64,000 nucleotides of DNA. Origin: Magnolia sinica (Eukaryota; Streptophyta; Magnoliopsida; Magnoliales; Magnoliaceae). Shown here piece after piece: positions 2,584 to 63,011 of this stretch. Within the stretch, counting starts at the first letter, position 1. Each line of letters opens with the position of its first letter. The DNA lies in contig NC_080582.1 of NCBI RefSeq assembly GCF_029962835.1, positions 21,770,032 to 21,834,031 of the forward strand. The letters run 5' to 3'. Below the pieces are notes generated by a model that saw only the letters and a program-made list of their open reading frames with translations, searched no databases and had not been told where the DNA came from. Made by a program: the position numbers and the translations under genes.

Positions 2584-2757
2584 GGGCCCACATTGATCAT
2601 ATGCTGTATATCCACTCTGTCTATCGGTTTTTACAGCTCATTTTAACACATGGTCCCAAAAATTAAAGATATAAAAATCTAGTGGACTACACTACAAGAA
2701 ATAGCGATGATTTAACGCTCACAGTAAAAACTTTCCCAACGCCCAGCAACATCTTTT
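2584..2757. mobile_element. Left half of a MITE split by copia element 1
   Basis: The sequence runs 'gggcccacattgatcatatg', 'cagctcattttaacacatgg', 'agtggactacactacaagaa', then stops at the copia LTR. The matching half resumes at 8065 with 'aatggtcattcaccac' and 'tggtccacc'. The two halves are flush with the 5-bp target duplication CTTTT (2753-2757 and 8065-8069). Confidence 0.8.
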
Positions 2758-3111
2758 TGTTGGGTCTAAAACCCAGCTTCCTGCTGACGTGTGGCTGCAG
2801 CCACCATGAAACAAAAATTAGAAACTTTTGGAAGAAGAAGAAGAGAGAACAGCAGCTGTATTGGAATGAATCGAAAATCGTATTACACTGCTGCCTATTT
2901 ATAGGCTTTCTTATTGTGTGAAATTACTAAACAATCCCTGTCTAGATTCATCCTAGGGGTAGCTAAATAAAGAAAAAATAATCCAGAGAAATCTAGAAAG
3001 AAATCTACATAGCTAGCAATTTGATCTTAGAAGAAAAAAAAATCTAATCTAACAACTTGCACATAAGATATGCACACAGTTTTGGATTTGCAGAAATCAC
3101 CGTTTCCAACA
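2758..3111 (-). repeat. 3' LTR of copia element 1
   Basis: Reads TGTTGGAAACGG to GACCCAACA on the minus strand and pairs with 7711-8064. The adjoining purine tract (AAGGGGAG on the minus strand, 3112-3119) is the plus-strand primer site. Confidence 0.95.
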
Positions 3112-6100: not shown

Positions 6101-7214
6101 ATGAGTCTCCAAACGTTACATCACCATGAACTCCTTCTGTGAGTTCCACAAAGAGTTTCTTGTCGCCGCACATGTGATTACTTGCACCCGTGTCGAGATA
6201 CCATACATCATGCTGATCACTACCTTTCTCTTGTGCAAGGAGAAGTGTGGAGCTTTCTTGTTCATGGCTTGATGCTTCGGCATAGTTGGATAGCTCGTCT
6301 TGAGTCACCGGCGTGCTCCAGCAATCAGATGCATAGTGGCCAAGTTTGTTGCAATTGTAACATTGGATGTTCTTTGTACTTCCTCGTCCATGCATAGATC
6401 TACCTCTACCATTTCCTCTTCCATGGAGATTGGTATTTTTCTGCTGGTTTTGGCCATGGCTTTGTTGGTATCTGCGCCCTCTGCCTCTTGCGCGATTGTT
6501 AGCAAAACGTCCACCACGTTGTGAACTTCCACATCCACCATTGTTATTATTCAGAGTCAATCTTGACTCTAAAGCTTGTTCCATCGGCATGGAACTGGCA
6601 TTCTTCTGCATTCGTTGCTCATGAACTTGCAACGATCCCATCAACTCCTCAATGGAGAGTTTCTCAATATCTTTTGATTCTTCGATCGGCACAACCACAT
6701 GCTCAAACTTGGTTGTGAGGGTTCGAAGTATCTTTTTAATAACTCGGACATCTTCAAACTTTTCACCATTTCTTTTCAAATTATTGACAATTACAAGCAA
6801 ACGTGAAAAATAATCAGTAATATTCTCACCTTCCTTCATGTGAGTCGCTTCAAACTCGGCTCTTAATGTTTACAGGCGAACCCGCTTCACTCGATCTACA
6901 CCCTTGAAGATGGTGCTAAGGGTATCCCATGCTTGCTTGCTTGATATTACTTCGGCAATCTTTTCGAAGGTGGATTCATCCAACCCTTGATAGAGGAGAA
7001 ACAAAGCTTTATTGTCTCTCTTCCTCTGATTTTTTAGAGTGATATTTTCTTCATTGGTGAAGACGGCTTCTTCTTCCATAGTGGGTTCTTCATACCCATC
7101 CGTGAAGATTTCCCATAATTCTTGCGACCCAAATAATGCCTTCATTTGGATGCACCATTTTTCATAGTTGTCCTTTGACAACTTAAGAACCCGCGGCTCG
7201 ATTGTGCTAGCCAT
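3112..7214 (-). pseudogene. copia gag-pol region (fossil)
   Basis: Read on the minus strand, the order is: gag from about 7214 with the 'LSKDNYEKW' start typical of plant copia gag; a CCHC zinc knuckle (CYNCNKLGHYASDC) near 6315-6365; the aspartic protease motif DTGASNHM near 6170-6195; the GAG-pre-integrase 'WHLRFGHLNF' near 5770-5810; the integrase core with 'HSDICGPL' and 'DDFSRKLWVY' near 5500-5610; reverse transcriptase with 'SAFLNGV' near 4300 and 'YVDDLLF' near 4045-4065; and RNase H with 'DWGGDQDERKS' and 'ALSTCEAEY' near 3410-3570. Integrase before reverse transcriptase is diagnostic of Ty1/copia. In life it would have encoded the particle and replication enzymes. The copy is broken. 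Confidence 0.95.
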
Positions 7215-7694
7215 CTTTTCTATTTTTTAAAGGAATGGCTGTTTCTTTTTTGAAAAATGAAGGGAGATAGAAAAATAGATTTTTTTTGGCTAAAATCTGA
7301 TTTTTTTTAAAACAGGTTTTTTTTTTTTTTTGCTGCAATCTCTTTCTTTTGCAAACAGATTTTTTGCAATCTGATTTTTTTTTATAACAGGTTGTTGCTA
7401 CAATCTGATTTTTGAAATCAGATTTTTTCAATTGGATTTTTTTTTTTTAAAGCAGATTTTTTTTGCTGGAAAATGTTTCTGATAAAAAACTGGACCTGTG
7501 GGTTATGGCCCCACCACAACTGACGTATCAAACAAACCTGGCAGAGGGAAAACAGGGAGTGCGAGACCTCCTTCCATGGCTGATTTGTCTTGGGTATTGC
7601 AGACCCAAAACAGGTGTAGAACCTCCTTCTTACGGCTGATGAGACCCAATGATCAACAACTCCTTCTCATGGCTGATGAGGCCCAAGGATTAAG

Positions 7695-7707
7695 GGCTCT
7701 GATACCA
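7695..7707 (-). other. Primer-binding site, initiator Met tRNA type
   Basis: TGGTATCAGAGCC on the minus strand, three bases inside the 5' LTR, is the usual plant copia site pairing with the 3' end of initiator methionine tRNA. Confidence 0.9.
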
Positions 7708-7710
7708 CTT

Positions 7711-8064
7711 TGTTGGGTCTAAAACCCAGCTTCCTGCTAACGTGTGGCTGCAGCCACCATGAAACAAAAATCAGAAACTTTTGAAAGAAGAAGAAGAGAG
7801 AACAGCAACTGTATTGGAATGAATTGAAAATCGTATTACACTGCTGCTTATTTATAGGCTTTCTTATTGTGTGAAATTACTAAACTATCCCTGTCTAGAT
7901 TCATCCTAGGGGTAGCTAAATAAAGAAAAAATAATCCAGAGAAATCTAGAAAGAAATCTACATAGCTAGCAATCTGATCTTAGAAGAAAAAAAAATCTAA
8001 TCTAACAGCTTGCACATAAGATATGCACACGGTTTTGGATTTGCAGAAAGCACCGTTTCCAACA
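7711..8064 (-). repeat. 5' LTR of copia element 1
   Basis: Pairs with 2758-3111. On the minus strand it carries the likely TATA box of the element in the 'gcctataaataagcagcag' stretch near 7845. Confidence 0.95.
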
Positions 8065-8233
8065 CTTTTAATGGTCATTCACCACTTTTTCTGGTGGTAT
8101 GGTCCACCAGAAATTTGGATCTGCTTTTTGTTTTTGTTTTTTTTTTAGAGGGGGGATAATGTCCTTAAATAAGCTGAAAAACCAAATGGACAATGTTGAT
8201 ATAATACAAAATCATCAAGGTGGCCCCCACATA
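8065..8233. mobile_element. Right half of the MITE split by copia element 1
   Basis: Continues the copy that starts at 2584: 'aatggtcattcaccac', 'tggtggtatggtccacc', 'aagctgaaaaaccaaatgga', ending near 'atcatcaaggtggcccccac'. Confidence 0.8.
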
Positions 8234-16845: not shown

Positions 16846-16899
16846 GTCCCCTCCACTTCAAAAGAACTCGTCCTGCTTTGGTTCATGATACTCGGTTAG

Positions 16900-19295
16900 G
16901 TCCGCAATATTGAAAGTCTGCAAGATCGCCATGTCATCTGGAAGATCAACAATGTAAGCATTGTCATTGATCTTTCAGATGATCGGTACTGCTCCAATTT
17001 TCTTATTCTTCAATTTGTTATACGTCCCGGTCGGAAATCTCTCTGTGTAGATGGACCATAACGTGGTCGCCCACCTCAAACACTTTTTGTCGCCGCTACT
17101 TGTCCGCTTGTTCCTTGTACTTCTCATTCAAGGCATGTAGCTTGGTTTGCTCCTCCGCATGAATGGCCATGATACTATCTACCATATGTTCTACTACAAT
17201 ACTCATGTTCGGGAGCTTGGGCAAGAGAACTCAGTCAAGTGTGTAACGAGGCAATCGACTGTAAACAATATGGAACGGGGATTTCCCTGTCAAGTGGTTC
17301 ACCGTGTCGTTGAATACAAACTCCACTTGAGAAAAAGTCAAATCTCACTGCTTCGAGTTTTCACCTGAAATGCATAGGAGGTTTCTCAACGAGCAATTCA
17401 CAACTTCAGTATGTCCATCAGTCTGTGGATGGTAGGCGTTGCTGAACTGAAGGCTTATATTGAATTGAGTCAAAAAAGTTCGTCAAAAGTGACTAATGAA
17501 CTTCATGTCACAATCAAAAGTAATGGTCTTGGGAACCCTGTGTAGCCGCATGACCTCTCTGAAGAATAGATTCACCACGTATGTTGCATGAGGGTCTTCT
17601 CACATGGGATAAAGTGCGTCATCTTGGAGAAATGATCTACCATCACGAACACTGAATTCATGTCGCGTTGTGTCCATAGAATACCAAGCACGAAGTCCAT
17701 AGAAAAATCTTCTCGGGTCGTCAGGCACATGTAACAGGGTATAAAGGCTCGTATTCTGAGATTGCCCATTGGAAGTCTGACAAACACGACAATGTTGTAC
17801 TGCTTTTCCCACATCATGTACCAATTACGACTAGTAATACCGCTCCTCTACAAGAGTTTAGTGATGCACGACGGCTAAGTGCATCAGTCACCTTGTTCTG
17901 CTGCCCTGACTTGTGCTTTAGAACGAACGTAAATTCCTGCAAAAACATAACCCATCTAGCATGCACATGATTCACGTTAGTCTAACTATTAATAAGCTTT
18001 AATGCTTGATGGTTAGTGTACAGAACAAACTCTCTTTGAATCAAATAATGCCGCTAATGTCACAGTGCCTAAACAATTGCGTACAACTCAAGCTCATATG
18101 TCAACTTCTTTCGAGCTTTACTGTAATTTTCACTATAGAAGGCTACCAATCTGCCTTCCTGTGATAATAATCCTCAAATTCCGACATATGAAGCGTCACA
18201 CTCAACTTCAAACAGTTTGTCGAAATTAGGAAGAATCAAGACCAGTGTTGTGGACAATTGATGCTTGATTTCATGAAAGTTTTTGTCAGTCTCTTCGGTC
18301 CACTGAAATAGTCCTTTTTTCATGCAATCAATAATAGATGTGACTATCATGTTAAAATTCTACACGAATCGACAATAAAAGGTCGATCGTCAACCCGTAG
18401 AAACTCCTCACTTCATGAAGGTTTGTCGGGATCGATCATCCCTAATGGCTCACACATTTTCATCGTACACATGGATGCCCGTGGATGTTACAACAAATAC
18501 TATGAACAACAGGTTGTTCGTTAAAAAGCTACACTTCTTTAAGTTGAGATACAACTTGTTAACTTATAAGACCTATAGTACTTGCCTAAGATGTTCTTTG
18601 TGCTGTCTCATACTGGCTATATATCAGGATGTTGACAAATCGGCCAGTGAATGGTTTTAGCACTTGATTCATCAAACGCATAAAAGTGTTTGGTGCATTC
18701 GATAGACTGAAGAGCATAACCAGTCACTCATACAACCCTTCATTAGTCTTAAATGTCATTTTCCACTCATCGTCAGGTGGGATACGAATTTGATGGTACC
18801 CGCTTCTTAGAATATAACTTAGAGAACACCTTAGCCCCTTCTACCATATCGAGCATATTGTCCAACCGCGGTATTGAGAACCGATATTTGATGGTAATTT
18901 TGTTGATTGCCCAACTATCGACACACATTTGCCAACTTTCATCTTTTTTTAGCATTAATAACGCTGGTCGACACATGTGCTCATGCTCTCTCTCAAAAGA
19001 CCCTTATAGATCAATTCCTCCACTTACCCCTAAAGTATCTCACACTCCTTCGGACTCATCTGATAATGAGGGCTGTTGGCAGGCTTGCCCTAGGGACAAG
19101 GTCTATGTAATGCTAGATGTCCATCGAATAAATCTTCAAGCCAGACTTTTTTAAATTCGTTTAGCAATAGCATTAAACTTGGAGGAACGTTTGAGGGCTC
19201 CGATTCCTCGCCCTTCACTACTATAGCGTATACCTCGCCAATTTCCTAAGATTTCTCCATAAAATCTCAAATGCAAATGAGCGAACTCCCCTCCA
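16900..19295 (-). pseudogene. gypsy reverse transcriptase to integrase region (fossil)
   Basis: Minus-strand translation shows reverse transcriptase words '[17 protein letters not shown]', '[11 protein letters not shown]' and 'PRLDNML' at about 18830-18970. RNase H-like text lies near 17950-18150, and integrase words '[11 protein letters not shown]' and '[18 protein letters not shown]' lie at about 17590-17720. These belong to the Ty3/gypsy polyprotein, probably a chromovirus-type lineage. The region is broken in many places and is cut at 19295 by the CACTA insertion. Confidence 0.88.
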
Positions 19296-19430
19296 CACTA
19301 CTAAAAATTAGGGCAACGCTGACGGCAATAACCTTCCCTGACGGCTTTTAGTCGTCGGACGGTCCGTCAAGAAAGGCATCAGCGTTGCTCACTGATGGAT
19401 TAAAACCGTCGACGTCACCAATAGTTTTTG
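19296..19430 (+). repeat. CACTA element left terminal and subterminal repeat
   Basis: Starts CACTACTAAAAATTAGGGC and is followed by several 'gacgg / ccgtc' words within 120 bp. Such subterminal words are where CACTA transposases bind in known families. Confidence 0.85.
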
Positions 19431-19802
19431 CAGTCAACAATTCTTATTAATTAAAAAAAAATAATGAAAATTAATTGCCTGATCAATGCACACATCCAAA
19501 ACTAGATATACCCATTTCTCCAAAGCCCTAAACGAACCAACCTATTTGAGAAGGCAAGTCTACAGAAAAGAAAAGGAAGAAATCAAAATCAAATATATCA
19601 TCCAAATTCCAAATATTTGGATTGGATATTTCAGTCAATATGTCTAAGTATACTCCTATAAAGAATAATATAAAATGTCCTCCATGTAATAGTCATTAAA
19701 AATAACTACAAATCCAAGAAAACTTTGATAGATTCAAAGTAGAAAAGAAATAGAACTTGCTCATTTTGTTATCACCTTTCCTAAGGTGAACTGTTGTTGA
19801 AA

Positions 19803-19955
19803 TTTACCTGGGCAGTTTGTTCTAGGACCATTGCGAGTTATGATAGTCTCAAATGTGCCTGAAGTTGTTGTTGCGCCAATGATAAAGGGCTTGAACTGAT
19901 CTCCATAGCTTTGGAGTAATGGTTCATCTCCAACAACAATATACATGTAAATTGT
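19803..19955 (-). pseudogene. Possible captured exon, unrecognised
   Basis: On the minus strand an open stretch reads TIYMYIVVGDEPLLQS and then GATTTSGTFETIITRNGP, ending 'tgcccag' followed by 'gtaaat', a good splice donor. An AG lies just upstream. It looks like a host exon carried by the CACTA element, in the same orientation as the other captured exons. I do not recognise the protein. Confidence 0.45.
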
Positions 19956-20177
19956 TCTGTTAGTAAACGATACATAAATTTCAAAATATAATTGCCATTA
20001 TCTTTATTAACATAGAAAATGAAATGAACATTATCATCCTTGTCTTGTGTGAAGGAAAAGAAAAATTATGTATCTAAGAGATGGTCTAAAATCCAAACAG
20101 TTGGACAATAAGTTATGGTTCACCCAGTGGGGATAACTTCAACCTTTCATGTGTGTGAAATAAGGCAGATCCCAATC

Positions 20178-20590
20178 TCAAGTGGATCAATAACTATGTA
20201 TCGAAGCTGTTCATTCATTTTGCCAGCTCATTTTAGAGCATGGTCTGAGTAAATAAGGCAGATCCCAATGTCAAGTGGATCACACCACAAGAAAAAAAAG
20301 TGGTAATTGAACTCCCATCATTAAAAAATTCTAAAGGCCCTCTGTAATGTTTATTTATCATCCAATCCGTTGATAAGGTCACAATGACCTGAATGAAGGG
20401 AAAACACGGAATAGCGTTTTGATCCAAAACTTTTGTGGCCCCCAGAAATCCCTACTATGGTTCACCTGAGATTTTGTATCTACCTCAATTTTGGTATAAT
20501 GCCCTCAAATGAGCTGAAAAAACAAATGAAAAAATAAAAAGAATGGACGGTGTGCATCTACAACACATACATCGAGGTGGGCCACACATT
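20178..20590. mobile_element. MITE copy inside the CACTA element
   Basis: Family arms 'ccagctcattttagagcatg', 'aagtggatcacaccacaaga', 'gatccaaaacttttgtggc', 'tggttcacctgagattttg' and 'caacacatacatcgaggtgg' are present. It must have entered after or together with the captured sequence. Confidence 0.8.
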
Positions 20591-21001
20591 CAGGGCCTCA
20601 CTCACTAAACTGTTAAACTGTTACCCTGCCTCACTTAATCCACGACTCCCAACGACGGTGTCTTTCGTCAAAGCACACGTCCTTCCTCAGAAATCCCATG
20701 AAACTACAAACACTATCAGCCCAAAACTGCAAAGTGGACACCTGGCATTTCAAAAGGTCATAGCCACTAAATAAAAACTCATCAAGGAGGTCCCAAGTCT
20801 AACGTGTTGGATTACATTAATAGTCCACCTTGCAAATAACTTTCAAAAACCTAAGATCCAACATGCAAATCAAACAGTGCATCACAAAAAAGACATCAGC
20901 TATAGAGAGTATCTAACACAACTTCTAGAGGATGATACTAAAATTTTTGAAGTATGTAACATACTTGGAACCCATCAGTACTTGCTAGAAATTATGTTGA
21001 C

Positions 21002-21130
21002 ATGCCTCTCAGGACAAATCTGCTCTCCCCCTGGGAGTTGTTCATATTCTATGTTGTCGATAGACACCTCATTCATGATTGGGATGTAACCCGGATAAGG
21101 ATCCAAATTAGGAACATAAAACAACAACAA
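21002..21130 (-). pseudogene. Captured exon of an ABCC (MRP-type) transporter
   Basis: Minus-strand translation gives LLLFYVPNLDPYPGYIP, then IEYEQLPGGEQICPERH. This matches, from memory, the linker before the first nucleotide-binding half of plant vacuolar ABCC1/ABCC2 transporters (their PNLDPYPG... and GGE.ICPERH stretch). These proteins pump glutathione and other conjugates into the vacuole. Only this piece is present, about 40 codons. A stop lies just upstream in the same frame and the sequence leaves the family after ICPERHV, where a GT donor could sit. So it is a fragment without function of its own, moved here by the CACTA element. Confidence 0.82.
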
Positions 21131-22492
21131 GATGTGTGACGTGCATCAGGTGGACCTCCATGTTGATGGATGACCTACCCAAGAAAAAACTCAACTAAGA
21201 ACATATCGATGGCTAAAAACCACTGAGCTATGGTGTTCTTATGGTAGGGGAGCTGTTTGATCCAATGGCAGAGTGCAATAGTTGATAAGCAAACACTCAC
21301 AAAATGTGTAAGTGGCAGATATCTGCTCAAATTGAAGAGTACAGAGTTTATCATTCCAAATAATATTGATTAAACAATCCTAACTTATAGATATAATCAA
21401 GGGACATTTGTTCATTGAATTCAAATGGACTACTCTTCTTTTTTTCCCGGCCATCCTGTGTCAATTTTCATATATGCTGCCGCTTAATTGGGTCAACTTG
21501 TAGAATTCTTAGAACCTATGTATCAACAATCACACTCTGTTGGACTATCAAAGTTAATGTAGGCGGAGAAACACCTATAATGGACCTGATATTTTAAAAC
21601 AATTTCTGATGAACAGAGTATTAAACCCTCTCAACCGTTCACAAATGGTGAAAATAAACAAGATGAGGATTGAAGGATTGAAGAATGTAGAGAAGGGGAT
21701 ATTATACACATTCAAATCAGTCAGCACCTAATCAGTCATCACATGCTAAGTAGGTTTTGCAGGAAAATTTTGTAACACAAATATAAGCAAATGAAATCAA
21801 CAGACAGTACAAGGTCTACAGCAGACCATATTTCAAAAGAAAATTATTATAGAGCTGGATGTTTTGCTCAAGCAAATAGAGTTAAACAATCTACTTCAAA
21901 GTTCAAAAATTAAGAAAATATGAAAGATCGAATCCGTTGTCTAGCTCTCATTGCAAAAACATATAGTGTACCTTTCCTCCCAAACTGACCACCAGGTAGA
22001 AAAATAAGAACATAATATAGACAGACCAGTAATCAACTACAAATTTGCTTCTTTTTTAAAAATCTAATATCCTAGAAGCCCCTTGTGCTGACTATCCACT
22101 CTTATGTTAGCCTCAAAGGAACAAGCAGAAAACAAACAATATATCTACCTAGATCTCGAATCTCATAACAGTTTTCATAAACCCAAAACTTTCCTCGAGG
22201 CCCAAGCAATAATCGAAAAAGAACCTCCTTACACCACAAGTTCAGAAATTTGACATGCCTATATGTGCAAACTTTACAGAAAATTGAAGAGATAAGATGC
22301 AATATCGAAAGGTATTAGACATAATACCAATATGGATGCTTTTCCTATTTTGAAATATCTGGGTATCATCTGCCAGCTATTCCACCCCCCGGTTATTCTC
22401 TCTCAATACTTTTACGGGCCCGTATGAAAAGATTTTCAAGTGGACCCACTACCAACCACTCATATCTATAGTTGCTTAAAAAAGATGACTAC

Positions 22493-22605
22493 CTGCCAAT
22501 ATTGGGAGCCCGGGCTACAGCATATACCCTATCACCCCCGTCTCCTGGTAAAGCTAATTCAGCAACTGGTAGCCATCGTTGATGAACCCCATCAAATTCC
22601 CAAAC
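22493..22605 (-). pseudogene. Captured exon of nucleoporin SEH1
   Basis: A clean 113-bp exon on the minus strand, with 'ctctacag' acceptor before and 'ggcag|gtagtc' donor after, reads VWEFDGVHQRWLPVAELAL, then DRVYAVARAPNIG. I recognise this as a stretch of plant SEH1, the WD40 subunit of the nuclear-pore Y complex (family text: VWEFDE.H.RWLPVAELAL...VYAVAWAPNIGRPYE). Both splice sites are intact, so it could still be spliced into a transcript of the transposon. The neighbouring SEH1 exons were not found. Confidence 0.82.
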
Positions 22606-22770
22606 CTGTAGAGCATTTACAATAAGACAAGGTGCAGCCACTATTATAAGGCTGCTTCATTCCCTACACACTATTTGGTTCAGTTATAAATTTTAGTTGA
22701 AGCATAAAAAGTCACCACTACGATTCCACTGTTTAAGGTTAAAAATAAAATTAGAAGAAGAGCTTCTGGT

Positions 22771-22882
22771 CTATTTCTTAACCTCACTTGCCTCGGCTAA
22801 TGAGACTGCCCAAAATAGTTCTCTTACATCAGGATTTGCGGGAATGTAGCCTTGCTTGAATACGAGGACGTCCCTTGTTGAT
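22771..22882 (-). pseudogene. Captured terminal exon, gene not recognised
   Basis: After a good acceptor ('gactgttttag') the minus strand reads STRDVLVFKQGYIPANPD, then VRELFWAVSLAEASEVKK and a stop. It looks like the last coding exon of a host gene. A probable partner exon, VGVGDTSGGVNQ, lies at about 22992-23027 behind 'cgttcttgcag', and its donor reads 'ataagt' in place of 'gtaagt'. I cannot name the protein. Confidence 0.6.
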
Positions 22883-23940
22883 CTAAAACAGTCAGAGAAT
22901 TACAATTAAAGAAAGAAAGAAAAAGAAAGAAAGAAGGCAAGCAGGCAATCAGACACTCAAATGCTACCAAAAAGAAAAAGAAAAACTTATCTGGTTAACT
23001 CCCCCTGAAGTGTCACCTACACCAACCTGCAAGAACGGAAACCAGATAAGTCTCAAATGTGTACTTAGCAATCAAGGCATCACAAACATGCTGAATCAGA
23101 CTGATTTTTAATACAGGACCATGTGGACTTGAAACCTTTTGGGTGTTTTCACAGAATTTCATTTTCCATTCCGTGCAAACTTTGAACAGTCAAGATTGTT
23201 TATGCAACAATTGGGACACTTGGCCAGTTCAATCCATTGACCTAGACTGTTCTTTAGGTCCAACACACATTACATGGGCTACTATGTAAATGTCACACCA
23301 ATCTGACCATTAACCATTTGATCAATGTCTTTTAATATGAACAGTCAAGATTGTTTATGCAAAAATAGGTCCAATCAGCAGTTTGATCTATCTGTTAAGG
23401 ACCATCATGGATTGCTTATAATTCTAAAGAATCACGTCTATTAGGCAATTGCAACCATCCCATCCATGGCTTGGCGAAAGGATGGCTATAGAAAATAAAG
23501 CCACATCGGGGATAGATTGGATCATTATATCAGTGCGATTTCTGCATGGCAGCCTGTGAAATGTGTTCCGGACTTGATGAACAGTTCAAATCAATCAATT
23601 AGAGCGTCCAAGTTACTATAACTTAGTGCTCTGAGAGCACCAGAGCATCTCTCAACCAAAAGTTCAGTTTTCAAGAGTTGGCAGTGTATGATGGAAAAAA
23701 GAAAGCATAGAACCACATCGCAAGAAGCCAACAAAAGGGTACATTGATGTTTTTTGCTGAAAAAAACATTCAACAGGCATTTCAAGTAGCTTCAGCCTTC
23801 CATTCGGATCCCATCTGTAACCACACAATACATCCTCCTTTCGAAACGGATATCATTTCAAAAAAAATAATAATAATAAAATAAAATAAATGAGCCAACA
23901 ACTGACGCTGAGACATTAAATAGCATAGATTAGTCCTAAC

Positions 23941-24140
23941 CTTTGTCATCCGTTGTTCATAGCTTGCTTTTGAAGGCCCAACACACTCTTTGTCAAAACT
24001 TTGATTGCAATGAAAAAAACCATCATTAAATTTTGCCATGGAAGTAAGTCTCAGGACTTGGAGTTGGTCCATTTTATCCTCACACCTCGTGTACAGTTTC
24101 TCACATAACTTTGGTGATATTCATTTGCCAGAATGAAATT
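23941..24140 (-). pseudogene. Captured exon of a guanylate-binding family protein
   Basis: The minus strand reads NFILANEY, then in the next frame LCEKLYTRCEDKMDQLQVLR and MAKFNDGFFHCNQSF...ECVGPSKASYEQRMTK. It ends at a good donor (aag|gttagg) and starts after 'atatacaag'. This is the C-terminal helical part of plant guanylate-binding proteins (dynamin-like large GTPases with GBP and atlastin relatives). One frame change separates NEY from LCEK, so the exon is damaged. It lies 0.6 kb 3' of a second exon of the same gene. Confidence 0.82.
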
Positions 24141-24737
24141 CTTGTATATCTACACAAAATTTCAACAAATATACAGTGAATACAGTTATATAATAATATG
24201 TTCCAGCAATTCTTTAAAACAAAGTAATCTTGATATAAGATGCCTTGACAATCACTTCTCAACGGGAAGACTTGTTAAAATCACACACACATCTACACAG
24301 CCACATGGTATAGATGGGTCTACCTCTACACAGCCAATTGTTAAAATCACAGACACTTCTACAACCTTTACACAGCCACATGTGCCAACTTGGCATGTGT
24401 GGGAGATCCAAGCTGTAAATAAGGTGGGTCCACTGCGTTGATGATCTGGCAAAATACGAGGCAGGCCACTCATGAGGACACATGTATGTTAAAAGTGGGC
24501 AGCCAACTATGTTCTCAAACCATTCATTCAGTTTGTAGGTGTTGCCAATTTGATGAGTTGATCAGACTGATTCTTGGGCCAGGTTATCTACATGATGGAG
24601 TCTGCATGATTTATAGCTCAGTTATCCTAAGTATATGGCCATATGTAGAGGTGATTGTGGGCTTAGCAAAGCTCTAGCGAAAGAGGAAAATAGAAACTTC
24701 AATAATATCTCTCTGATATTGTACTCCCTAATTATAC

Positions 24738-24995
24738 CTTCTGTATTTCTTCATCCAACTTATCTACAAACCATTTAGCATGATGTCGACCAAAATGCTG
24801 CTCGTCGAAGACTTTCATTGCTTCTTCTCTTGATTCATCATGTGCTTGCCGCAGCATGGGCACTGAGACTGGCAGCCCCAGCCTCTCCATCCTTTGATTG
24901 TATAACTCCAAGCAGTGCTCAAGAATCGCCTTATTGAAAACCTCAACTAGAGAACCCGTCGATGGAATCTCTCCTTTGTTCAAGGCCTCAAGAAT
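24738..24995 (-). pseudogene. Captured upstream exon of the same guanylate-binding protein
   Basis: An 86-codon exon on the minus strand, between acceptor 'gtttcag' and donor 'aag|gtataat', reads ILEALNKGEIPSTGSLVEVF, later DEQHFGRHHAK and LDEEIQK. From memory this matches the middle of plant guanylate-binding family proteins almost residue for residue (EALNKGEIPSTGSLVEVFN... FDKQHFGRHHA). The GTPase domain would lie further 5' and is not present in the element. Exon-intron-exon order is kept, so capture was from genomic DNA, not from a processed mRNA. Confidence 0.88.
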
Positions 24996-26679
24996 CTGAA
25001 ACACCCAATAATAAACTCTTGTAAAAGAAATAGCGATGACCAAAGACAACCATTGCTATCCTTGTCGGAAATTTAATGGCAAATGGAAGTACGATATGCT
25101 CCAAGGGGTAGGGTAACAAATTTTTATGTGGAATGGGAAAATCAAAGAAAAGTTACCTGCTCTAAAAAAGATACGAACTCCTTCGTGGCCACCATTCATA
25201 TCTACAGTTTCGATCATTGAACCATGGACCCAACTTTTACAAACTGAAAACCCCAACACATCATAGAAACTACCTGTCTAAGCATTATATGAAACCTTCT
25301 AACAAGGACAGTGTACTTTGCTAAAGAATTACGTGCTAGTGTAGGCAACATGGACACTACTGTAGACAAAAAACTAATATTACCTTTTCATTTGTGTCAT
25401 GGGTAATGCCGGAGTCTGTGAGGGTTAAAAGGCATCACAAATTGAAACTGCTCACAAGTAAATTCTTTTTTTTACAATGGTGGCCCACTTGATGATTAGA
25501 ATGGGTGAACAGGCCGGCCATTCCTCATTGGCCCACGATCAGCTTGAATACCACGCCTATATTTCAAGCCCAGGCCCTGCCCTTTCGCCATGTTTAGGGT
25601 CCAAGCCCTGGCCTAAAGCGGTGGGAGGGCCGGGCTGCTTGGCCCATTGCCACTTCTAGCATTAATGGCACGAATGGGCCTAGGTATCATCCATGGAGAA
25701 GTTATCTAACCCCTACCCATAAATCCACCAAGTCTAGTGGCCCACCATGAATAGGAGAATCAGGCTAATTAATTCACTCATTAGGTAAGCCACAGCTTCC
25801 AATTGATTTCAACAGCATGCATGGCACTAGGTGATCATAATGGTAAGGTTGAATCGTGGCATCATTGTAAATGTGATAGGCTCTCATCAGATAAGGTCCC
25901 AAGGTAGATTTCTTGCCCACAAAGCAAGCCAATCTGTCTGGCAGGTAGATTAGAAATAGACACGGTCTGACAAAATTGACCAATGACTCATATTCAATGT
26001 ATATTTGTGGCCTAGTGAAGCAGCCAGAGCATTTGCCCAGGACATGTTTGTACTAGGCATCATCTCATGAATGTTTCCCAATCTGGCCCACAAGTGCAGT
26101 GATGACATATGAGCTACAAATCCCTCTATCCATCTCATGGACCCCACCAAATGAACCATCCATATGCATACCAAAAGTGTGAATCACAATATAGGTGACC
26201 CAACCCACGTGTATCCTAATAGCTCCTACGATCCAATACTCAATTAATTGTTCTAACCATCCATTGGACAGGCCACAAAACAGATGGTTAGAATCAACAT
26301 TTGGACTGCGGTATCTTTCTTTTTGATCATATGCATTGCCATACCTACCCTCACTCACCTGACTACAGTCTGATCAAAGATTGTTCCATGCCAGTTTATG
26401 TATGCATGCAAGGCACCCATCAGACCACATGAAGGGAAAGAAAAATTGATATACATACACACACCTTTTAAATGGTAATCAATGAAATATACCAAATCCA
26501 TAGAGATTAAACACAAATCTCGTTGAGGCCAGACATCGAACAAATGGCGTGCACCATCTTCTATGAAACAAAACTGATGAGATCGAAGAAACTAGCATGA
26601 CCAGTAAGAAATATAATACGAATATATTATCATTCATAGAGACCTCAACAGATGGGCCAGGCGTTGATGAAGCGTTGCC

Positions 26680-26890
26680 GTAAAATGATTGGGATTAAAC
26701 GGAATGTGAAGATGAAACTTCCAAACAGAAATGTAGAGTGCAGCCCTGCGAATGCTCACCTATTTGAGATGGTTCTGCACGGCGACTGGTGAGGAAGAAG
26801 GCGCTCGAACGAGGGAATGGTGAGGAAGAAAATGGCGGTCGAAAGAGGGATTTGGAAATTTCCTCCGCTGAAATGGGATAAGAGATTCAA
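26680..26890 (-). other. GC-rich island near the CACTA right end
   Basis: An island of higher GC lies in AT-rich sequence. On the minus strand it ends at 'ctcaaatag|gtgagc', a plausible splice donor. It could be a captured promoter and 5' untranslated exon feeding the captured exons downstream. There is no direct evidence of expression. Confidence 0.3.
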
Positions 26891-27171
26891 ATTCGGAAAA
26901 TGGGTGTTTTACGTAATTTATAAAAATAAACTGTATTTACAGCCGTACGATTAAGGGTGCATTTACTTGATGGCTAAGATACTTTTACATAGGAAAATTA
27001 TAAATATAAACCATCTACAACAAGACCCATTATTTGGATGGTCTGGATAGCCATATATCAAACCCACTTTTTATAAGAACAAGTCATCACTATTTTACAT
27101 TAAATGCAAAACTAACACCTTTTCACCTTACAAATAACCACGTTAGCTTTAGCTTTGGATCTGGTAGGGCG

Positions 27172-27340
27172 TTGTGGGCCCAGCATGATGTTTTTGTTTA
27201 ATCCACACCATATATCCATTTGTAAACATTCTTTTAACATTGACACCAAAAAATGAGCTTGAAATATATCTCAGGTGAACCACACCACAGGCAAACAATA
27301 GCAATTGGACATCCACCGTTAAAAATGGCTCCCTGGGTAC
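27172..27340. mobile_element. Half MITE copy inside the CACTA element
   Basis: 'gtgggcccagcatgatgttt', 'aatccacaccatatatccat', 'caggtgaaccacaccacagg' and 'ccaccgttaaaaa' make up a left arm. The mirror arm is missing, cut off by the CACTA right subterminal repeat. Confidence 0.75.
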
Positions 27341-27345
27341 AGATA

Positions 27346-27445
27346 AATGAGTTTCGGCTACAGCTTTTAGCCGTTGGCAGCTCCAATGGCTTTTAGTCGT
27401 AGCAGAAACCACCTCACATCGACTTTGCCCTATTTTTTGGTAGTG
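27346..27445 (-). repeat. CACTA element right terminal and subterminal repeat
   Basis: Reverse-complemented it begins CACTACCAAAAAATAGGGC and contains 'cgactaaaagccattgg' and 'aacggctaaaagctgtagcc' words, the counterpart of the left end at 19296. Confidence 0.85.
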
Positions 27446-28516
27446 TCACTTTAAAAGTTTTAGGATAGTTCTCTAGTGCTATAGAAGCAAGGATTATTTT
27501 TCGACTATCTTCAATGAAAATGTAAATAGTGTCTCGTCCTCGGTAGATCGCATCACGATTCGACTACCATAGTTGACCAAGTAACATATGGCATGCTTTC
27601 ATGTCGACTACGTCACAAAATATTTGATCTTTATAAGTTTTGTCAATTGAAAATGATATGGTGCATTGTTCATTTACCTTGGTCTCGTTCACCTTTTTTT
27701 ATCCAGCTACTTGAATATAGGAAAGGATGTTTTGTCATTAGTAGCTGCAACTTGTCCACTATGACTCTTGAGACGATGTTCTTGCTACCACTATCTATTA
27801 TTACATCATAGACTTTGTCGTTAATGGTGATCCTTCCGTAGGGTGTACAGTAATTGCCTCACAACTAGATATTCGCCACGATCCTCGCTTATCCATTCAT
27901 CACCATCTACTCCTTCCTCGGTGGCTTATTCATGTTCATCAAAATCATGGTCTTCTTCTGCGGCATCACATTCAGTGCCCCCTTCGTTTATGGTCAAGTG
28001 AGTTGCGGGGCTCAAGGACATGTGTTTGATAAGTAGTCCGGTTGGTCACAATGGTAACAATTATTCTACCTTAGCCGAACGTAAGGATTTAGAATCCTAC
28101 TTGGGTCCGCAGTTGTGAATACTACACGTTGAGGCCTAGATGAGCTGCTCCTCGTATCACGGTTTGTGGTTGCAGGAGGTTGTGGACATTCTCCTATTGA
28201 TTCTTTTCCTTGTGCCAACATTAGATCCTGTGTAGGACTTGTCATGGGGGGTTGAGTTGAAGGATAACACCGAGCATGAACTCTTGCAAGTTGCGTTTTG
28301 GCCCTATTTGCCAAATGAACTGCTTCATCCATAGTTCTGACTAAGTGCATCTGAACTCGGTTCTGAATCGTCAATCGTAACCTACCTATAAATCATACTA
28401 CCTTCTATGATTCAAATTCTGACGGATCATTTGTCTTACTAACCGCTGGAATTCTTCAGTGTAATCTGTAATGATTCGATTTTCTTGTCGGCAATTTTGA
28501 TATTGCTGAAACAATA
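27446..28516 (-). pseudogene. gypsy gag 3' part and protease region (fossil)
   Basis: The minus strand shows gag text 'QYQNCRQENRIITDYTEEF' near 28440-28505 and a linker rich in S, P and T near 28070-28370. Protease-region words lie near 27700-27830 ('DKVYDVIIDSGS'). It belongs to gypsy element 1 and is bounded by the CACTA element on the left and the long LTR-type element on the right. It is broken. Confidence 0.82.
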
Positions 28517-30092: not shown

Positions 30093-30471
30093 TGTTGGAT
30101 ACGGTGGAGGATTTGTGCAAATCCAAAACCGTGCTAACTGTGCATGCAAGATCCGTGTGAGCTAGCTGTGCTGGCAGTTTTTTTCTAAGTTTAGATTATA
30201 ATAGTTGTGTTAAATCTAATAGCTGTGTTAAGATTTCATTAAGATTTTTTCTGGATTTTTTTCTTTCTTTAACTGCCCCTAGGATGAATCTAGACAAGGA
30301 TAAATCAATCATTTCACCTAAGTAGAAAAGCCTATAAAAGGGACCACTGTAATCGTTCAAAATCATTCCAATACAGCAGCAGTTCTCTCTTCCTCTTTTT
30401 CAAAGTTTTAGTTTTTGTTTCATGGTAGCTGCAGCCACACGTCAGCAGGAAGCTGGGTTTTAGACCCAACA
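30093..30471 (+). repeat. 5' LTR of copia element 2
   Basis: TGTTGGATACGGTGGAGG to TTTTAGACCCAACA. A likely TATA box lies in 'aagcctataaaagggacca' near 30330-30346. Confidence 0.95.
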
Positions 30472-30474
30472 AAG

Positions 30475-30487
30475 TGGTATCAAAGCC
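30475..30487 (+). other. Primer-binding site, initiator Met tRNA type
   Basis: TGGTATCAAAGCC lies three bases after the 5' LTR; it differs by one base from the site of copia element 1. Confidence 0.88.
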
Positions 30488-30952
30488 CTTGATCCTTGGG
30501 CCTCATTAGCCGTGAGAAGGAGCTGTTGATCCTTGGGCCTCATCAGCCGTGAGAGCCTCATCAGACGTGAGAAGGAGCTGCTGATCTGTGAGAAGGAGGT
30601 CCTGCACCTCTACCTGTTTTAGGTGTCTGCAAATACCTAACAACAAAACCAGTAGAAAAGTTCCAGCAAAAAGTTTTCTAGCAAGTTTTCAGCCACAACA
30701 GAATTTATTTTTTTTCCAAAAAAAAAAATCTGTTTTGAAAAAAATCAAATTGCAGCAAAAACAAAAACATCTATTTTTAAATCAGCTTGCCAAGCCAATG
30801 GGTTGTTTTTTTTTCAAAAAATAAAAATAAAAAATCAGAGTTTAAGCAAAAAAGGTCAGATTTGAGAAGATTTTTTTTCTATTGTTTTTTTAAAAAAATA
30901 AAATCTGTTCTTCTAGTCCATCCCTCTCTTTAAAAAAAAGAAAAAGAAAAAG

Positions 30953-33900
30953 ATGGCTAACACAAACCAGCCACAAGTTCCTAAGTTATCAAAGGACAAC
31001 TATGAAAAATGGTACATCCAAATGAAGGCATTGTTCGGGTCGCAAGAAGTATGGGAGATCATCACCGATGGGTATGAAGAACCCACTATGGAAGAAGAAG
31101 CCGCTTTCACCAATGAAGAAAAGATTGCTCTAAAAAATCAAAGGAAGAGAGACAATAAAGCTTTGTTTCTCCTCTATCAAGGGTTGGATGAATCCACCTT
31201 CGAAAAAATTGCCGAAGTAATATCAAGCAAGCAAGCATGGAATACTCTTGACACCATCTTCAAGGGTGTAAATCGAGTAGAGCGGGTTCGCCTTCAAACA
31301 TTAAGAGCCGAATTCGAAGCAACTCACATGAAGGAAGGTGAGAATATTACTGATTATTTTTCGCGTTTGCTTGTAACTGTCAATAATTTGAAAAGGAATA
31401 GTGAGAAGTTTGAAGATGTCCGAGTTATTGAAAAGATACTTCAATCCCTCACAACCAAGTTTGAGCATGTGGTTGTGGCGATCGAAGAATCAAAAGATAT
31501 TCAGAAACTCTCCATTGAGGTGTTAATGGGATCGTTGCAAGTTCATGAGCAACGAATGCAGAAGAATGCCAGTTTCATGCCAATGGAACAAGCTTTGGAG
31601 TTAAGATTGACTTTGAATGATAACAATGGTGGACATGGAAGTTCTCAACATGGTGGACGTTTTGCTAACAATCGCGCAAGAGGCAGAGGGCGCGGATACC
31701 AACAAAGCCATGGTCAAAACCAGTAGAAAAATACCAATTTCCATGGAGAGGAAATGATAGAGGTAGATCTATGCATGGACGAGGAAGTACAAAAAACGTC
31801 CAATGCTACAATTGCAATAAGCTTGGCCACTATGCATCTGATTGCTGGAGCAAGCTGGTGACTCAAGACGAGATATCCAACTATGCCGAAGCATCGGGGC
31901 ATGAACAAGAAAGCTCCACACTTCTCCTTGCACAAGAGAAAGGTAGTGATCAGCAGGATGTATGGTATCTCGACACGGGTGCAAGTAATCACATGTGCGG
32001 CGACAAGAAACTCTTTATAGAACTCACAGAAGGAGTTCATAGCGATGTAACGTTTGGAGACTCATCAAAAACGCCAGGAAAAGGTAAAGGTAAAATCAAA
32101 ATCTTTCAGAAGAATGGTGTTCCAAACTCTATCTCCAATGTATACTACGTGCCTAACATTAAAAGTAACATACTGAGTCTCGGACAACTCCTCGAAAAAG
32201 GGTATGTCATACACATGGAGAACTCTTCTCTTTCCATAAGAGATATACATGGACGTTTGATTGTAAAAGTCCAGATGGTGAAAAATCGTATGTTTCCTCT
32301 CCATATAAACATAATGCTTGAGAAGTGTTTTTATGGAAAAGCAAAGAATGATTCCTGGATGTGGCATCTTTGCTTTGGCCATCTAAATTTCAGCGGCTTG
32401 AAACTTCTGTCCTCATCAAGCATGGTGCATGGCTTGCCTGTTATTGAAGCTCCAGAACATATGTGTGAGGCGTGCACACTTGGGAAACAACAAAGGAACT
32501 CTTTTCCGAGTCAAGTATCTCAAAGAGCAAGAGAACCGTTGCAGTTGGTTCACAATGACATCTGTGGACCATTAGAGCCAATCTCTCTTGGAAGTAATAA
32601 ATACTTTATTACCTTCATTGATGATTTCAGTAGAAAATTATGGGTGTATATAATCAAATAGAAGTCTGCTGCTTTTACTATTTTTAAAAATTTTAAGGCC
32701 CTTGTTGAAAAAGAAAGTGGTCTTAAAATCAAAATCCTTCGATCTGACAGAGGTGGGGAGTACACCTCAAATATTTTTCGAGAATATTGTAGGGAACATG
32801 ACATTAAGCAACAACATACTACAGCGTACACGCCACAACAAAATGAAATTGTGGAACGGAAGAACCGCATCATCCTCGATATGACGAGGACCATGCTGAA
32901 GGAGAAAAGTCTGCCAAAGAATTTCTGGGCAGAGGCAGTTGCATGTACTGCCTATCTGCTCAATAGGTGTTTGATTAAGAGCGTCAGATTCCAGACACCA
33001 CAAGAAGCATGGAGTGGATACAATCCAAGCGTGGCGCACCTTAAGATCTTTGAGTGTGTTGCCTACGTTCAAGTTCCAAAAGAGAGAAGGAAAAAGCTTG
33101 ATGATCGTGACGAGAAGTGCATTTTCATCAGCTACAGCGAAGAGTCAAAGGCATATAAGCTCTACAACCCACTAACCAATAAGCTGGTGGTGAGTAGAGA
33201 TGTTGTATTCTGTGAGGAAGAAGCATGGAAATGGAACGAGAAAAACTCGGCCAAAGAAAAGCAGGTTGAGGTTGAAGAATATGAAGAAGAGAGACATGAG
33301 AAGCAAGAGCAGACACCCACATCACCTCCTTCGGATTGCAGAAGTTTAGGAGTACGCTCCATCTCTCCTGGAAGTACTTCATCAAATCAGCATTTATCCA
33401 GCACATCTTCATCCGATTCTCCTTCACCCTTGGCTCCCATAAAAATGAGAAGCCTCAACGACATCTATGGAGAAACTGAGGAATTGAATTTACTCTGCCT
33501 GTATGCGGACCACGATCAGCCTCTCACATTCGAGGAGGCTGTGAATGAAGAATGTTGGAGAAAGGCTATGGAAGAAGAGATTCATGCCATCGAGAAGAAT
33601 CGAACATGGGAGTTGCCTCACTCCCCAAAAGTCAGAAGACCATTGGTCTCAAATGGGTGTACAAAATCAAGCAGAATGTCGATGGTAAGATCGAACGATA
33701 TAAGGCAAGGCTCGTAGCAAAAGGTTACAAAGAGAAATATGGGGTAGACTATGAAGAAGTTTTCGCCTCAGTTGCTCGCCTTGACACTGTAAGAATGATT
33801 ATCTCCCTTGCAGCTCATCACAGTTGGATGATCTACCAACTGGATGTGAAATCCGCATTCCTAAATGGGGTATTCGAAGAAGAAGTATACGTTGACCAGC

Positions 33901-35051
33901 CTGAAGGCTTTGTCATGCAAGGGGAGGAACACAAGGTGTATCGGCAAAAGAAAGCCCTGTATGGGTTGAAGCAAGCTCTCCGTGCTTAGAATGCACAAAT
34001 CGATGGTTATCTTCAAGAGAATGGTTTCGTCAAATGTCCGTATGAGCATGTTGTCTACACAAAGAAGAATGCCCGTAGTGATATGCTTATCACTGGTTTA
34101 TATGTTGATGATCTGCTGTTCACTGGGAATAGCCAGGCGATGTTTGAAGAATTCAAGCAGGCTATGTTCAAAGAGTTCAAGATGACTGATGGTGGATTGA
34201 TGTCTTTCTTCTTGGACATTGAAGTGAAGCAACAAGTCGGCAGCATTTACATATCTCAAAAGAAGTACATAAAGGACCTTCTTGAGAAGTTTTAGATGGT
34301 CGACTGTAAAGCCGTAAATACACCTGTTACAATAGGCCTGAAGCTCACAAGAGATGGAGAAGGAAGAAACGTCGACTCAACCCTATTTAAGAGCCTAATC
34401 GGAAGTTTATGGTACATCACAATCACTAGGCCAGATATAGTTTACAGTGTTGGGCTTCTAAGCCGGTATATGGAAGCCCCAAAAGAGTCACACTGGCTAA
34501 CTGCAAAACGAGTACTGAGGTATATCAAAGGGACTATTGAATTCGATCTCTTTTATCCATACGATGATGAAGCAATGCTGTATGGATACTCAGACAGTGA
34601 TTGGGGAGGTGACCAAGATGAGAGAAAGAGCACCACTGACTATGTATTCTATCTCGAAATGACAGCATTCACATGGAATTCAAAGAAGCAGAGTGTGGTC
34701 GCCCTGTCCACATGTGAAGCTGAGTACGTAGCAGCTTCATCCACTATATGTGAGGCGATCTAGCTAAGGAATCTACTAAAGGAGTTGAAGCATCCACATG
34801 AGGAATCCACTGTTATATATGTGGACAACAAGTCGGCAATCGAACTTGCCAAAAATCCAGTTCAGCATGGAAGGATCAAGCACATCGACACAAGATATCA
34901 CTTTCTTAGAGATCAAGTAAAACAGAAATTGGTAAAGCTAGAATACTGTCAAACCACTGAGCAAGTAGCAGATATCTTCACCAAAGTATTGCCGACTGAC
35001 ACATTCAGGAGACTTAGATCAATGCTTGGAATGAAGCTAGTTTTGGTTTGA
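30953..35051 (+). pseudogene. copia gag-pol region (fossil)
   Basis: On the plus strand the order is gag from about 30953 ('LSKDNYEKW'), a CCHC knuckle near 31800-31845 (CYNCNKLGHYASDC), protease 'DTGASNHM' near 31972-31995, 'WHLCFGHLNF' near 32360, integrase 'DICGPLEPISLG' near 32560, reverse transcriptase with 'SAFLNGV' near 33855 and 'YVDDLLF' near 34100, and RNase H with 'DWGGDQDERKS' near 34600 and 'ALSTCEAEY' near 34705. Same lineage as copia element 1. Broken. Confidence 0.95.
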
Positions 35052-35058
35052 AGGGGAG

Positions 35059-35440
35059 TGTTGGATACGGTGGAGGATTCGTGCAAATCCAAAACTGTGC
35101 TAGCTGTGCATGCAAGATCCGTGTGAGCTAGCTGTGCTGGTAGATTTTTTCTATGTTTAGATTATAATAGCAGTGTTAAATCTAATAGCTGTGTTAAGAT
35201 TTCATTAAGATTTTTTCTGAATTTTTTTCTTTCTTTAACTGCCCTTAGGATGAATCTAGATAGGGATAAATCAGTCATTTCATGACCTAAGTAGAAAAGC
35301 CTATAAAAGGGACCACTGTAATCGTTCCAAATCATTCTAATACAGCAGCAGTTCTTTCTTCCTCTTTTTCAAAGTTTTAGTTTTTGTTTCATGGTGGCTG
35401 CAGCCACACGTCAGCAGGAAGCTGGGTTTTAGACCCAACA
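35059..35440 (+). repeat. 3' LTR of copia element 2
   Basis: Pairs with 30093-30471 and directly follows the purine tract at 35051-35058. Confidence 0.95.
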
Positions 35441-48234: not shown

Positions 48235-48861
48235 ACATGGAACTGCCACCCAAATCGTAATCAATTCTATTGTCGCCACGTGTACAACATATTACACCAA
48301 TTCGACGTGTACACCCATATGTCAAACATACTCAATCAACAATATAACCAGAACCGTAGACACTAGTGGGCTAGCAAGACCTTCGGTCACTCCCTAAGTG
48401 TACGATAGCACGGATGGAACGGAACCAAGTTCCAAAAAGATTAGGCGCTTTAAGCTTCTTACAAATGTGAAGTCCTATGATACACACCACGTGTGTCTAG
48501 GAACAGTGCTTCACACCATCCTTGTGGAGATTTAAACTTAGGTTTTTCCAAGCAAAAACTACCCTCTTATTACTAATCTAAGTTATTATTTTTATAAATT
48601 TTCCATATACAATATATTTATCTACTTTTTAAAACTACAAGATTTTATTTTTGAAGTTTAATTTCCTCATAAAAACACAACAACAGAAGCAATTGTTCTT
48701 GTCTATGCCAAGGCGCATGATATTGGTGTTGTTAGTGCCAATCTGATCCGTATAAAGACAGGTAATTAATGTCCCACCTCTTCAAGACAAAGGAGAAGTT
48801 GGCTTGCATGGTTAAGATCTAGTGGATGAAGGCATATTTGTTGTGCTTTTGGGAGGGCCTT

Positions 48862-49299
48862 AGTGTCGGCCCCACCTTGATGCATGTTACTCTACATCCA
48901 CTTCTTCCACTTGTTTTTCGATATCATCTTAGGGCATGAACCCAAAAGTGAAGCAAATCAAATCTCAAGTGGACCATAACATAGGAAACAGTGGTGATTG
49001 ACCATTAATTAACAAGTTATAATATGCCACAAAAGTTTTGGGTCGAACTGATATTTGCATTTTTCTCTTAATCCAGGTTCATGGGACTTATCAGGTGCAA
49101 GTTAGATGACAAATAAACATTCGGATAACATTAACATTATGGTGTGCCCTAGGAAAATTTTAATGATAGAATATCTAATTACCACTGTTTCCTATAGTGT
49201 GGTCCACTTGAGAATTGAATATTCTTCATTTTTAAACTCATATTCTAAACTTATCTGGAAAAACAGATGGACAGAGTATATTAGACCCCACTGTAAGGC
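48862..49299. mobile_element. MITE copy in duplication copy 2
   Basis: Appears identical to the copy at 47318-47755, so it arose by the tandem duplication and not by transposition. Confidence 0.82.
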
Positions 49300-49346
49300 C
49301 GCACCTAAGCTGCTCCTGCGTTGGGAACTACCCCACCAGGAGCTAA

Positions 49347-49440
49347 CCAGAGACGGATGGTCCTGAAAGGGGCCTGTGGGTTCACCACCGTGACACGTGT
49401 TTTATCCAGCTGTCCATGCATGGGCTCACAAAAGAGGCAG
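49347..49440. mobile_element. Left end of a MITE split by a 2-kb insert
   Basis: 'agagacggatggtcctgaaa', 'ggcctgtgggttcaccaccg', 'cacgtgttttatccagctgt' form the outer arm. The rest of this copy resumes at 51395, and its far end 'acgtccgtctctagt' (about 51737-51751) is the inverted partner. Confidence 0.75.
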
Positions 49441-60651: not shown

Positions 60652-60753
60652 CTGAAAAGGAAGCAGAGGACATTGAGTTGCAAAAGCCTAGACTAAAGTA
60701 TAATAATTTTTTTTTAAAGGTATTTTTATTTTACCAACAATGACTTATGGTAC

Positions 60754-63005: not shown

Positions 63006-63011
63006 AGTTTT

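What the first reader, a model, noticed from the sequence alone, without database searches (positions are those of the whole stretch)
19296..27445. CACTA transposon carrying exons of at least three unrelated host genes
Clear CACTA ends enclose minus-strand exons of an ABCC vacuolar transporter, the nucleoporin SEH1 and a guanylate-binding protein, plus one or two unrecognised exons. All lie in the same orientation and several have intact splice sites. Introns are kept (two guanylate-binding exons with about 0.6 kb between them), so the pieces came from genomic DNA. A single promoter could make a chimeric transcript across them: guanylate-binding, unknown, SEH1, ABCC.
Basis: partly seen in the sequence, partly recalled or inferred. 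Interest (0 to 1): 0.85.

Follow-up and report, generated by a model that had tools for sequence, protein, structure and literature searches.

The report
CACTA transposon carrying plant gene fragments
A plant DNA transposon carries broken pieces of at least three unrelated genes and sits inside an old retrotransposon; it is a good example of a known way in which plants shuffle gene pieces.

Summary
Window 19296-27445 is an 8150-bp element with CACTA-type inverted ends (18 of 20 matching; no pair in 100 simulated windows exceeded 17) and a subterminal motif shared by both ends and found nowhere else in the window. Its flanks read as one decayed Ty3/gypsy element, with gag- and protease-like remains (weak matches) on the right and RT, RNase H and integrase remains on the left, so the ends bound one insertion.

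Inside, on the minus strand, are two exons of a guanylate-binding protein with their intron, one SEH1 exon and part of an ABCC2-like exon. Two more exon-like stretches are unidentified. No transposase was found.

The proposed chimera is weaker than stated: the ABCC piece lacks clear splice sites and runs into a stop, and the second guanylate-binding exon is frameshifted. Chimeric RNA is possible; an unbroken GBP-unknown-SEH1-ABCC protein is not, with the splice sites seen.

This is a Pack-CACTA-like element, close to soybean Tgm-Express1: a new member of a known kind. Donor genes, sister copies and transcripts could not be tested.

The parts
19296..27445 (.). whole non-autonomous CACTA (Pack-CACTA-like) element, 8150 bp
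   Evidence: TIR pair 18/20, best in the window (next 16) and above every pair in 100 simulated windows; flanks in the order of one Ty3/gypsy element
19296..19315 (+). left terminal inverted repeat, CACTACTAAAAATTAGGGCA
27426..27445 (-). right terminal inverted repeat, CACTACCAAAAAATAGGGCA on the minus strand
19293..19295 (+). left copy of a possible 3-bp target-site duplication, CCA
   Evidence: 2 of 3 match with TCA at 27446-27448; dropping 3 nt, or none, keeps the frame of the flanking peptides
27446..27448 (+). right copy of the possible target-site duplication, TCA
19343..19355 (+). subterminal motif GGCTTTTAGTCGT, left end
   Evidence: two occurrences in the whole window within one mismatch on either strand, both in this element's ends
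27388..27400 (+). subterminal motif GGCTTTTAGTCGT, right end; a related word lies at 27360
24738..24995 (-). GBP exon A (guanylate-binding protein C-terminal domain), 258 nt, phase 0/0, open, AG and GT sites present
   Evidence: Pfam GBP_C PF02841, 32.8 bits, E 6.3e-8 for the exon alone; splice sites
23941..24149 (-). GBP exon B, 209 nt, AG and GT sites present, internal frameshift
   Evidence: adding its pieces to exon A raises GBP_C from 32.8 to 41.5 bits and the profile match from position 107 to 135, covering the first 27 of its 70 residues; reversed-B control 33.8 bits, to position 110; the rest of exon B has no database match; length and phase
24150..24737 (-). retained GBP intron, 588 nt
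   Evidence: between the GT after exon A and the AG before exon B
22783..22882 (-). unidentified exon-like stretch, 100 nt, phase 2/0, AG and GT sites present
   Evidence: open frame; no match in Pfam, NCBIfam (a prokaryote library) or PDB sequences
22493..22605 (-). SEH1 nucleoporin exon, 113 nt, phase 0/2, AG and GT sites present
   Evidence: PDB 9sob_O Protein SEH1, residues 203-239, E 3.9e-12; splice sites
20963..21136 (-). ABCC2-like transporter exon fragment with a TGA stop (20977-20975) and no clear splice sites
   Evidence: PDB 9u57_A ABC transporter C family member 2, E 7.4e-11 for 21002-21130; in the whole-frame search the alignment runs four residues past the stop; edges
19808..19956 (-). 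exon-like stretch, 149 nt, phase 2/1, AG and GT sites present; weak resemblance to non-specific phospholipase C
   Evidence: PDB 8hav_A (NPC4) E 0.14, 0.012 and 0.014 in three searches over about 30 residues, with an unrelated repetitive chain scoring as well or nearly so; no Pfam match; not established
26760..26922 (-). TATA-like word (26922) followed by a stretch without ATG that ends at a donor-like AATAG|GTGAGC (GT at 26759): possible captured promoter and 5' untranslated exon
   Evidence: inspection; on the minus strand of the element 4 TATA-like and 11 donor-like words were listed, so this is a conjecture
20197..20581 (.). dispersed repeat embedded in the element (20197-20447, with shorter similar stretches at 20456-20534 and 20537-20581)
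   Evidence: similar to many other places in the window, depth up to 24
27171..27326 (.). second partial copy of the dispersed repeat, near the right end
   Evidence: depth up to 6
16885..19295 (-). left flank: RT, RNase H, integrase and SH3 remains of a decayed Ty3/gypsy element, in different frames
   Evidence: Pfam RT_RNaseH 7.5e-23 and SH3_Tf2-1 5.5e-10 above cut-off; RVT_1 1.6e-4 and Integrase_H2C2 0.0016 below their cut-offs
27446..28510 (-). right flank: gag-, zinc-knuckle- and protease-like remains, probably of the same element
   Evidence: Pfam Retrotrans_gag 0.066 and Asp_protease_2 0.039, both below cut-off; CX2CX4YX4C peptide; no protease match in PDB; order and strand as expected

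Best explanation
This is a non-autonomous CACTA transposon of the Pack-TYPE kind in a plant genome. Shown here: matching CACTA ends around an 8.15-kb interior with no detectable transposase; exons or exon parts of at least three unrelated host genes (GBP, SEH1, ABCC2-like), all on the minus strand, with one intron kept; and a position inside a decayed Ty3/gypsy element, between protease-like and RT remains. Inferred: the ends are moved by the transposase of a related autonomous CACTA element; the pieces were taken up as genomic DNA, perhaps in several steps by fusion of neighbouring copies and joint mobilisation, as proposed for Pack-CACTA; they have since decayed as pseudogene fragments. If the minus strand is transcribed, the surviving splice sites could give chimeric RNAs of GBP, SEH1 and the unidentified exons, but not an unbroken GBP-unknown-SEH1-ABCC protein.
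For: Ends: 18/20 match and simulation control; shared subterminal motif found only at the two ends. Cargo: GBP_C, SEH1, ABCC2. Intron and splice sites. No transposase family in six frames against Pfam at E up to 1. Single insertion: gypsy domains in order on both sides, and frame kept across the empty site when 3 nt or none are dropped. Broken coding: frameshift in GBP exon B, stop in ABCC. Precedents: Tgm-Express1 and maize Pack-CACTA with several loci.
Against: The target-site duplication is 2 of 3, which chance gives about one time in six or seven. No second copy and no intact donor gene could be looked for. The right-flank gag and protease matches are below cut-off, the strict CCHC pattern did not match there, a PDB search with the protease-like ORF found no protease, and RT pieces scanned alone (18773-19003, 18200-19003) gave no Pfam family. 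GBP exon A has a sub-threshold match to a Tc5 transposase DNA-binding family (E 0.048, 14.1 bits against a cut-off of 22.2), which I take as chance because the same residues match GBP_C far better. That the pieces went from host genes into the transposon, and not the reverse, is general knowledge, not tested.
Confidence: 0.9

Rival explanations
1. The exons are remnants of ordinary local genes and the CACTA-like ends are a chance pair.
For: Splice sites around several exons look usable; the duplication is imperfect.
Against: Unrelated proteins are each represented by one or two exons only: one matched stretch each for SEH1 and ABCC2 in whole-frame searches. The ends beat every simulated pair, and the flanks look like two halves of one retrotransposon.
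Confidence: 0.03
2. A Helitron or a Mutator-like element (Pack-MULE) collected the exons and was later enclosed by the CACTA ends.
For: Helitrons and Pack-MULEs also carry several host gene fragments (PMC1947982 passages).
Against: No perfect GC-rich 6-9 bp hairpin followed by CTRRT on either strand of the element (0 found; 0.02 per simulated element; imperfect hairpins would be missed). The longest inverted repeat listed in 19200-27600 is 32 nt with 81% complementarity, not long Mutator ends (gapped or very diverged ends would be missed).
Confidence: 0.05
3. The element is an expressed chimeric gene: a captured promoter (TATA-like word at 26922, 5' exon ending at 26760) drives a minus-strand transcript spliced across captured exons, possibly with a selected product.
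For: All recognised pieces are on one strand. GBP exon A, SEH1 and the 19.9-kb exon join in frame without a stop over 173 codons if the exons between are skipped. TATA-like and donor-like words upstream. Tgm-Express1 gives chimeric RNAs.
Against: Two in-frame joins have a chance of about 1 in 9, and I looked at five splice combinations. GBP exon B is frameshifted, ABCC is broken, and the other orders tried through the unknown exon are stopped. Three loci on one strand happen by chance 1 time in 4. TATA-like and donor-like words are common in the element. No RNA evidence.
Confidence: 0.12

Closest known systems
Tgm-Express1 of soybean (CACTA; PMC1947982, abstract and passages seen)
   Same: CACTA ends around fragments of several unrelated host genes (five there), with exons and introns kept and splice sites usable
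   Different: Tgm-Express1 is 5.7 kb, sits in intron 2 of F3H and has proven chimeric transcripts; this one is 8.15 kb, sits in a decayed retrotransposon, carries other genes and has no transcript data
Pack-CACTA elements of Arabidopsis, maize and rice (PMC8903248: abstract, passages, sections 10 and 15 seen)
   Same: CACTA-type ends, no transposase, coding fragments, sometimes from several loci
   Different: Their pipeline filters on a duplication and removes single-copy clusters; here the duplication is imperfect and copy number is untested
Captured gene fragments in Chenopodium CACTA elements (PMC8978399, passages seen)
   Same: CACTA-like elements with host gene fragments
   Different: The passages describe fragments upstream of the element's own coding sequence; no CACTA coding sequence was found here
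Gene-carrying Helitrons and Pack-MULEs
   Same: Mosaic of host gene fragments
   Different: Other ends; not found here

Membership tests
CACTA (En/Spm) superfamily | terminal inverted repeats beginning CACTA | tested here: met
   18 of 20 matching positions, above every simulated pair
CACTA (En/Spm) superfamily | short target-site duplication (3 bp as recalled; PMC8903248 states 5 nt for rice and maize) | tested here: inconclusive
   CCA versus TCA, 2 of 3; the 5-nt flanks (CTCCA, TCACT) do not match
[quoted passage not shown]
   one 13-nt motif shared by both ends and a related word at 27360; dense repeat arrays of several hundred bases were not seen
Pack-TYPE (Pack-CACTA) | no transposase coding sequence | tested here: met
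   six frames against Pfam at E up to 1, no transposase family; one sub-threshold Tc5 HTH match on GBP exon A when searched alone
Pack-TYPE (Pack-CACTA) | contains host coding sequence | tested here: met
   GBP, SEH1 and ABCC2 matches at protein level; DNA match to the host's own genes could not be run
Pack-TYPE (Pack-CACTA) | more than one copy in the genome | not testable with these tools
   no genome held for this window
Helitron | 3' hairpin followed by CTRR (recalled) | tested here: not met
   no perfect hairpin plus CTRRT on either strand of the element
Mutator-like (Pack-MULE) | long terminal inverted repeats and 9-11 bp duplication (recalled) | tested here: not met
   longest inverted repeat listed in 19200-27600 is 32 nt; TIR similarity of the element fades after 20-30 nt; the duplication length was not tested for nested elements

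The most novel reading that the evidence does not exclude
The element is a live source of new exon combinations: a captured promoter and 5' exon near its right end make a minus-strand transcript in which GBP exon A, SEH1 and the 19.9-kb exon are spliced in frame into a new protein, skipping the broken pieces.
Probability: 0.06. Interest if true: 0.6.

Novelty: new member of a known kind. Interest (0 to 1): 0.33.

Why it matters
It is a well-bounded case of multi-gene capture by a CACTA element in a plant whose species is not given here, and the insertion site is itself partly readable (a split retrotransposon). It adds an example for the question of how Pack-CACTA elements collect several genes and whether their retained splice sites make chimeric RNA. 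It does not change what is known about the class.

Tried and rejected
Helitron and Mutator origins were tested and set aside. A chance TIR pair was set aside by simulation. Internal relics of further CACTA ends, which the fusion model of capture might leave, were sought: none inside the element with up to 4 substitutions to the element's own 19-nt end pattern; the looser word CACTACAAGAAA with one mismatch gave one internal hit at 20283, inside the dispersed repeat, where the same word recurs at other places in the window. The unidentified 22.8-kb exon gave nothing in Pfam, NCBIfam or PDB sequences. The 19.9-kb exon gave a weak phospholipase C match only. Relatives of GBP exon A in genome and viral contigs, and of the flanking RT piece in viral contigs: none. 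A text search for a motif of the 19.9-kb exon was uninformative. No Rfam match at gathering score in the window. The plus strand of the element was scanned with Pfam only (no family), not against PDB sequences. A paper search for magnoliid, CACTA and Pack showed no evident case among the 20 of 30 papers listed (listing only); that the window comes from a magnoliid was a guess that I did not test.
Full report
Ends and insertion. The element begins CACTACTAAAAATTAGGGCA at 19296 and ends, read on the minus strand, with CACTACCAAAAAATAGGGCA at 27445. The two 20-mers match at 18 positions. Among all CACTA/TAGTG pairs 300-15,000 bp apart in the window this is the best; the next reaches 16. In 100 windows simulated with the same dinucleotide frequencies the best were two pairs with 17. 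The word GGCTTTTAGTCGT occurs near both ends (19343 and 27388) and, within one mismatch, nowhere else in the window. The 3-bp flanks are CCA and TCA, so a duplication is possible but imperfect.

One insertion, not two ends of different elements. Left of the element the minus strand encodes RT, RNase H, integrase zinc-domain and Tf2-like SH3 remains (Pfam E 1.6e-4, 7.5e-23, 0.0016 and 5.5e-10; the first and third are below their cut-offs). To the right the minus strand has, in order, a gag-like stretch (E 0.066), a zinc-knuckle-like peptide with tyrosine at the histidine position and an aspartic-protease-like ORF (E 0.039). These right-hand matches are weak: below cut-off, with no protease found in PDB. 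RT pieces scanned alone gave no Pfam family. Yet order and strand are those of one Ty3/gypsy element split between protease and RT. When 150 nt of each flank are put together, one peptide on each side, which I take from recall for the protease tail and the linker, are in the same frame if 0 or 3 nt are dropped and not if 1, 2, 4 or 5 are; chance gives this about one time in three.

Cargo. On the minus strand, from the right end: GBP exon A (24995-24738), splice sites present, Pfam GBP_C E 6.3e-8 alone (8.4e-6 in the whole-frame scan). A 588-nt intron. GBP exon B (24149-23941): its pieces added to exon A raise the GBP_C score from 32.8 to 41.5 bits and extend the profile match from position 107 to 135, on both sides of the frameshift; reversed exon B gives 33.8 bits and 110; the last 43 residues of exon B are not matched. 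Exon B is 209 nt, where phases 0/0 need a multiple of three, and reads in two frames. An unidentified exon-like stretch at 22882-22783. The SEH1 exon at 22605-22493 (PDB 9sob_O, E 3.9e-12). An exon-like stretch at 19956-19808 with a weak match to phospholipase NPC4 (E 0.14, 0.012 and 0.014), which I do not count. No transposase family in six frames and no Pfam family on the plus strand.

Chimeric product. The order GBP A - GBP B - unknown - SEH1 is stopped inside GBP B; GBP A - unknown - SEH1 is out of frame and stopped; GBP A - SEH1 and GBP A - SEH1 - 19.9-kb exon are open, the last over 173 codons (five combinations tried). Chance gives two such in-frame joins about one time in nine. A TATA-like word at 26922 and a donor-like site after 26760 lie upstream on the minus strand; such words are common and this is a conjecture. 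Three loci on one strand have a one in four chance and need no special explanation.

Comparison. Tgm-Express1 of soybean is a 5.7-kb CACTA element with five host gene fragments and introns kept; at least 12 distinct transcripts were found, 11 of them with captured cassette exons (PMC1947982, abstract and passages). [quoted passage not shown]). The proposed mechanism is insertion of related elements close together followed by joint mobilisation (PMC8903248 passages; review PMC13317346 passages). I found no internal remains of this element's own ends, which neither supports nor excludes it.

Limits. No genome is held for the window, so donors, copies, age, species and expression are untested. 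The reach for plant proteins was limited to PDB sequences and family models.

Noticed in passing
58224-64000: A second CACTA-like left end (CACTACCAGAAAACTGGGC, 58224, plus strand) with no matching right end found before the window stops. Downstream on the minus strand is a CLP1_P exon (Pfam PF16575, E 2.5e-8 for 60552-60653; 3.3e-7 and 1.1e-6 in two frames), present twice in a tandem duplication (60555-60749 and 60751-60946, 94% identical). Possibly a second gene-carrying CACTA element.
   Followed up: partly
2756-8066 and 30093-35440: Two related elements in opposite orientation, probably LTR retrotransposons: 91% identical over 4.5 kb, with terminal direct repeats 97% and 95% identical within each, and a CCHC knuckle in each.
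   Followed up: no
46691-49777: Direct tandem duplication of about 1.5 kb, 98% identical.
   Followed up: no
20197-20447, 27171-27326 and many other places in the window: A highly dispersed repeat of about 230 bp in both orientations, about 66-78% identical between the element's copies and others, embedded in the CACTA element.
   Followed up: partly
59829-59930: Plus-strand peptide resembling part of a zinc knuckle (CFKCGGLDHITKDY) inside the possible second element; no Pfam match.
   Followed up: partly
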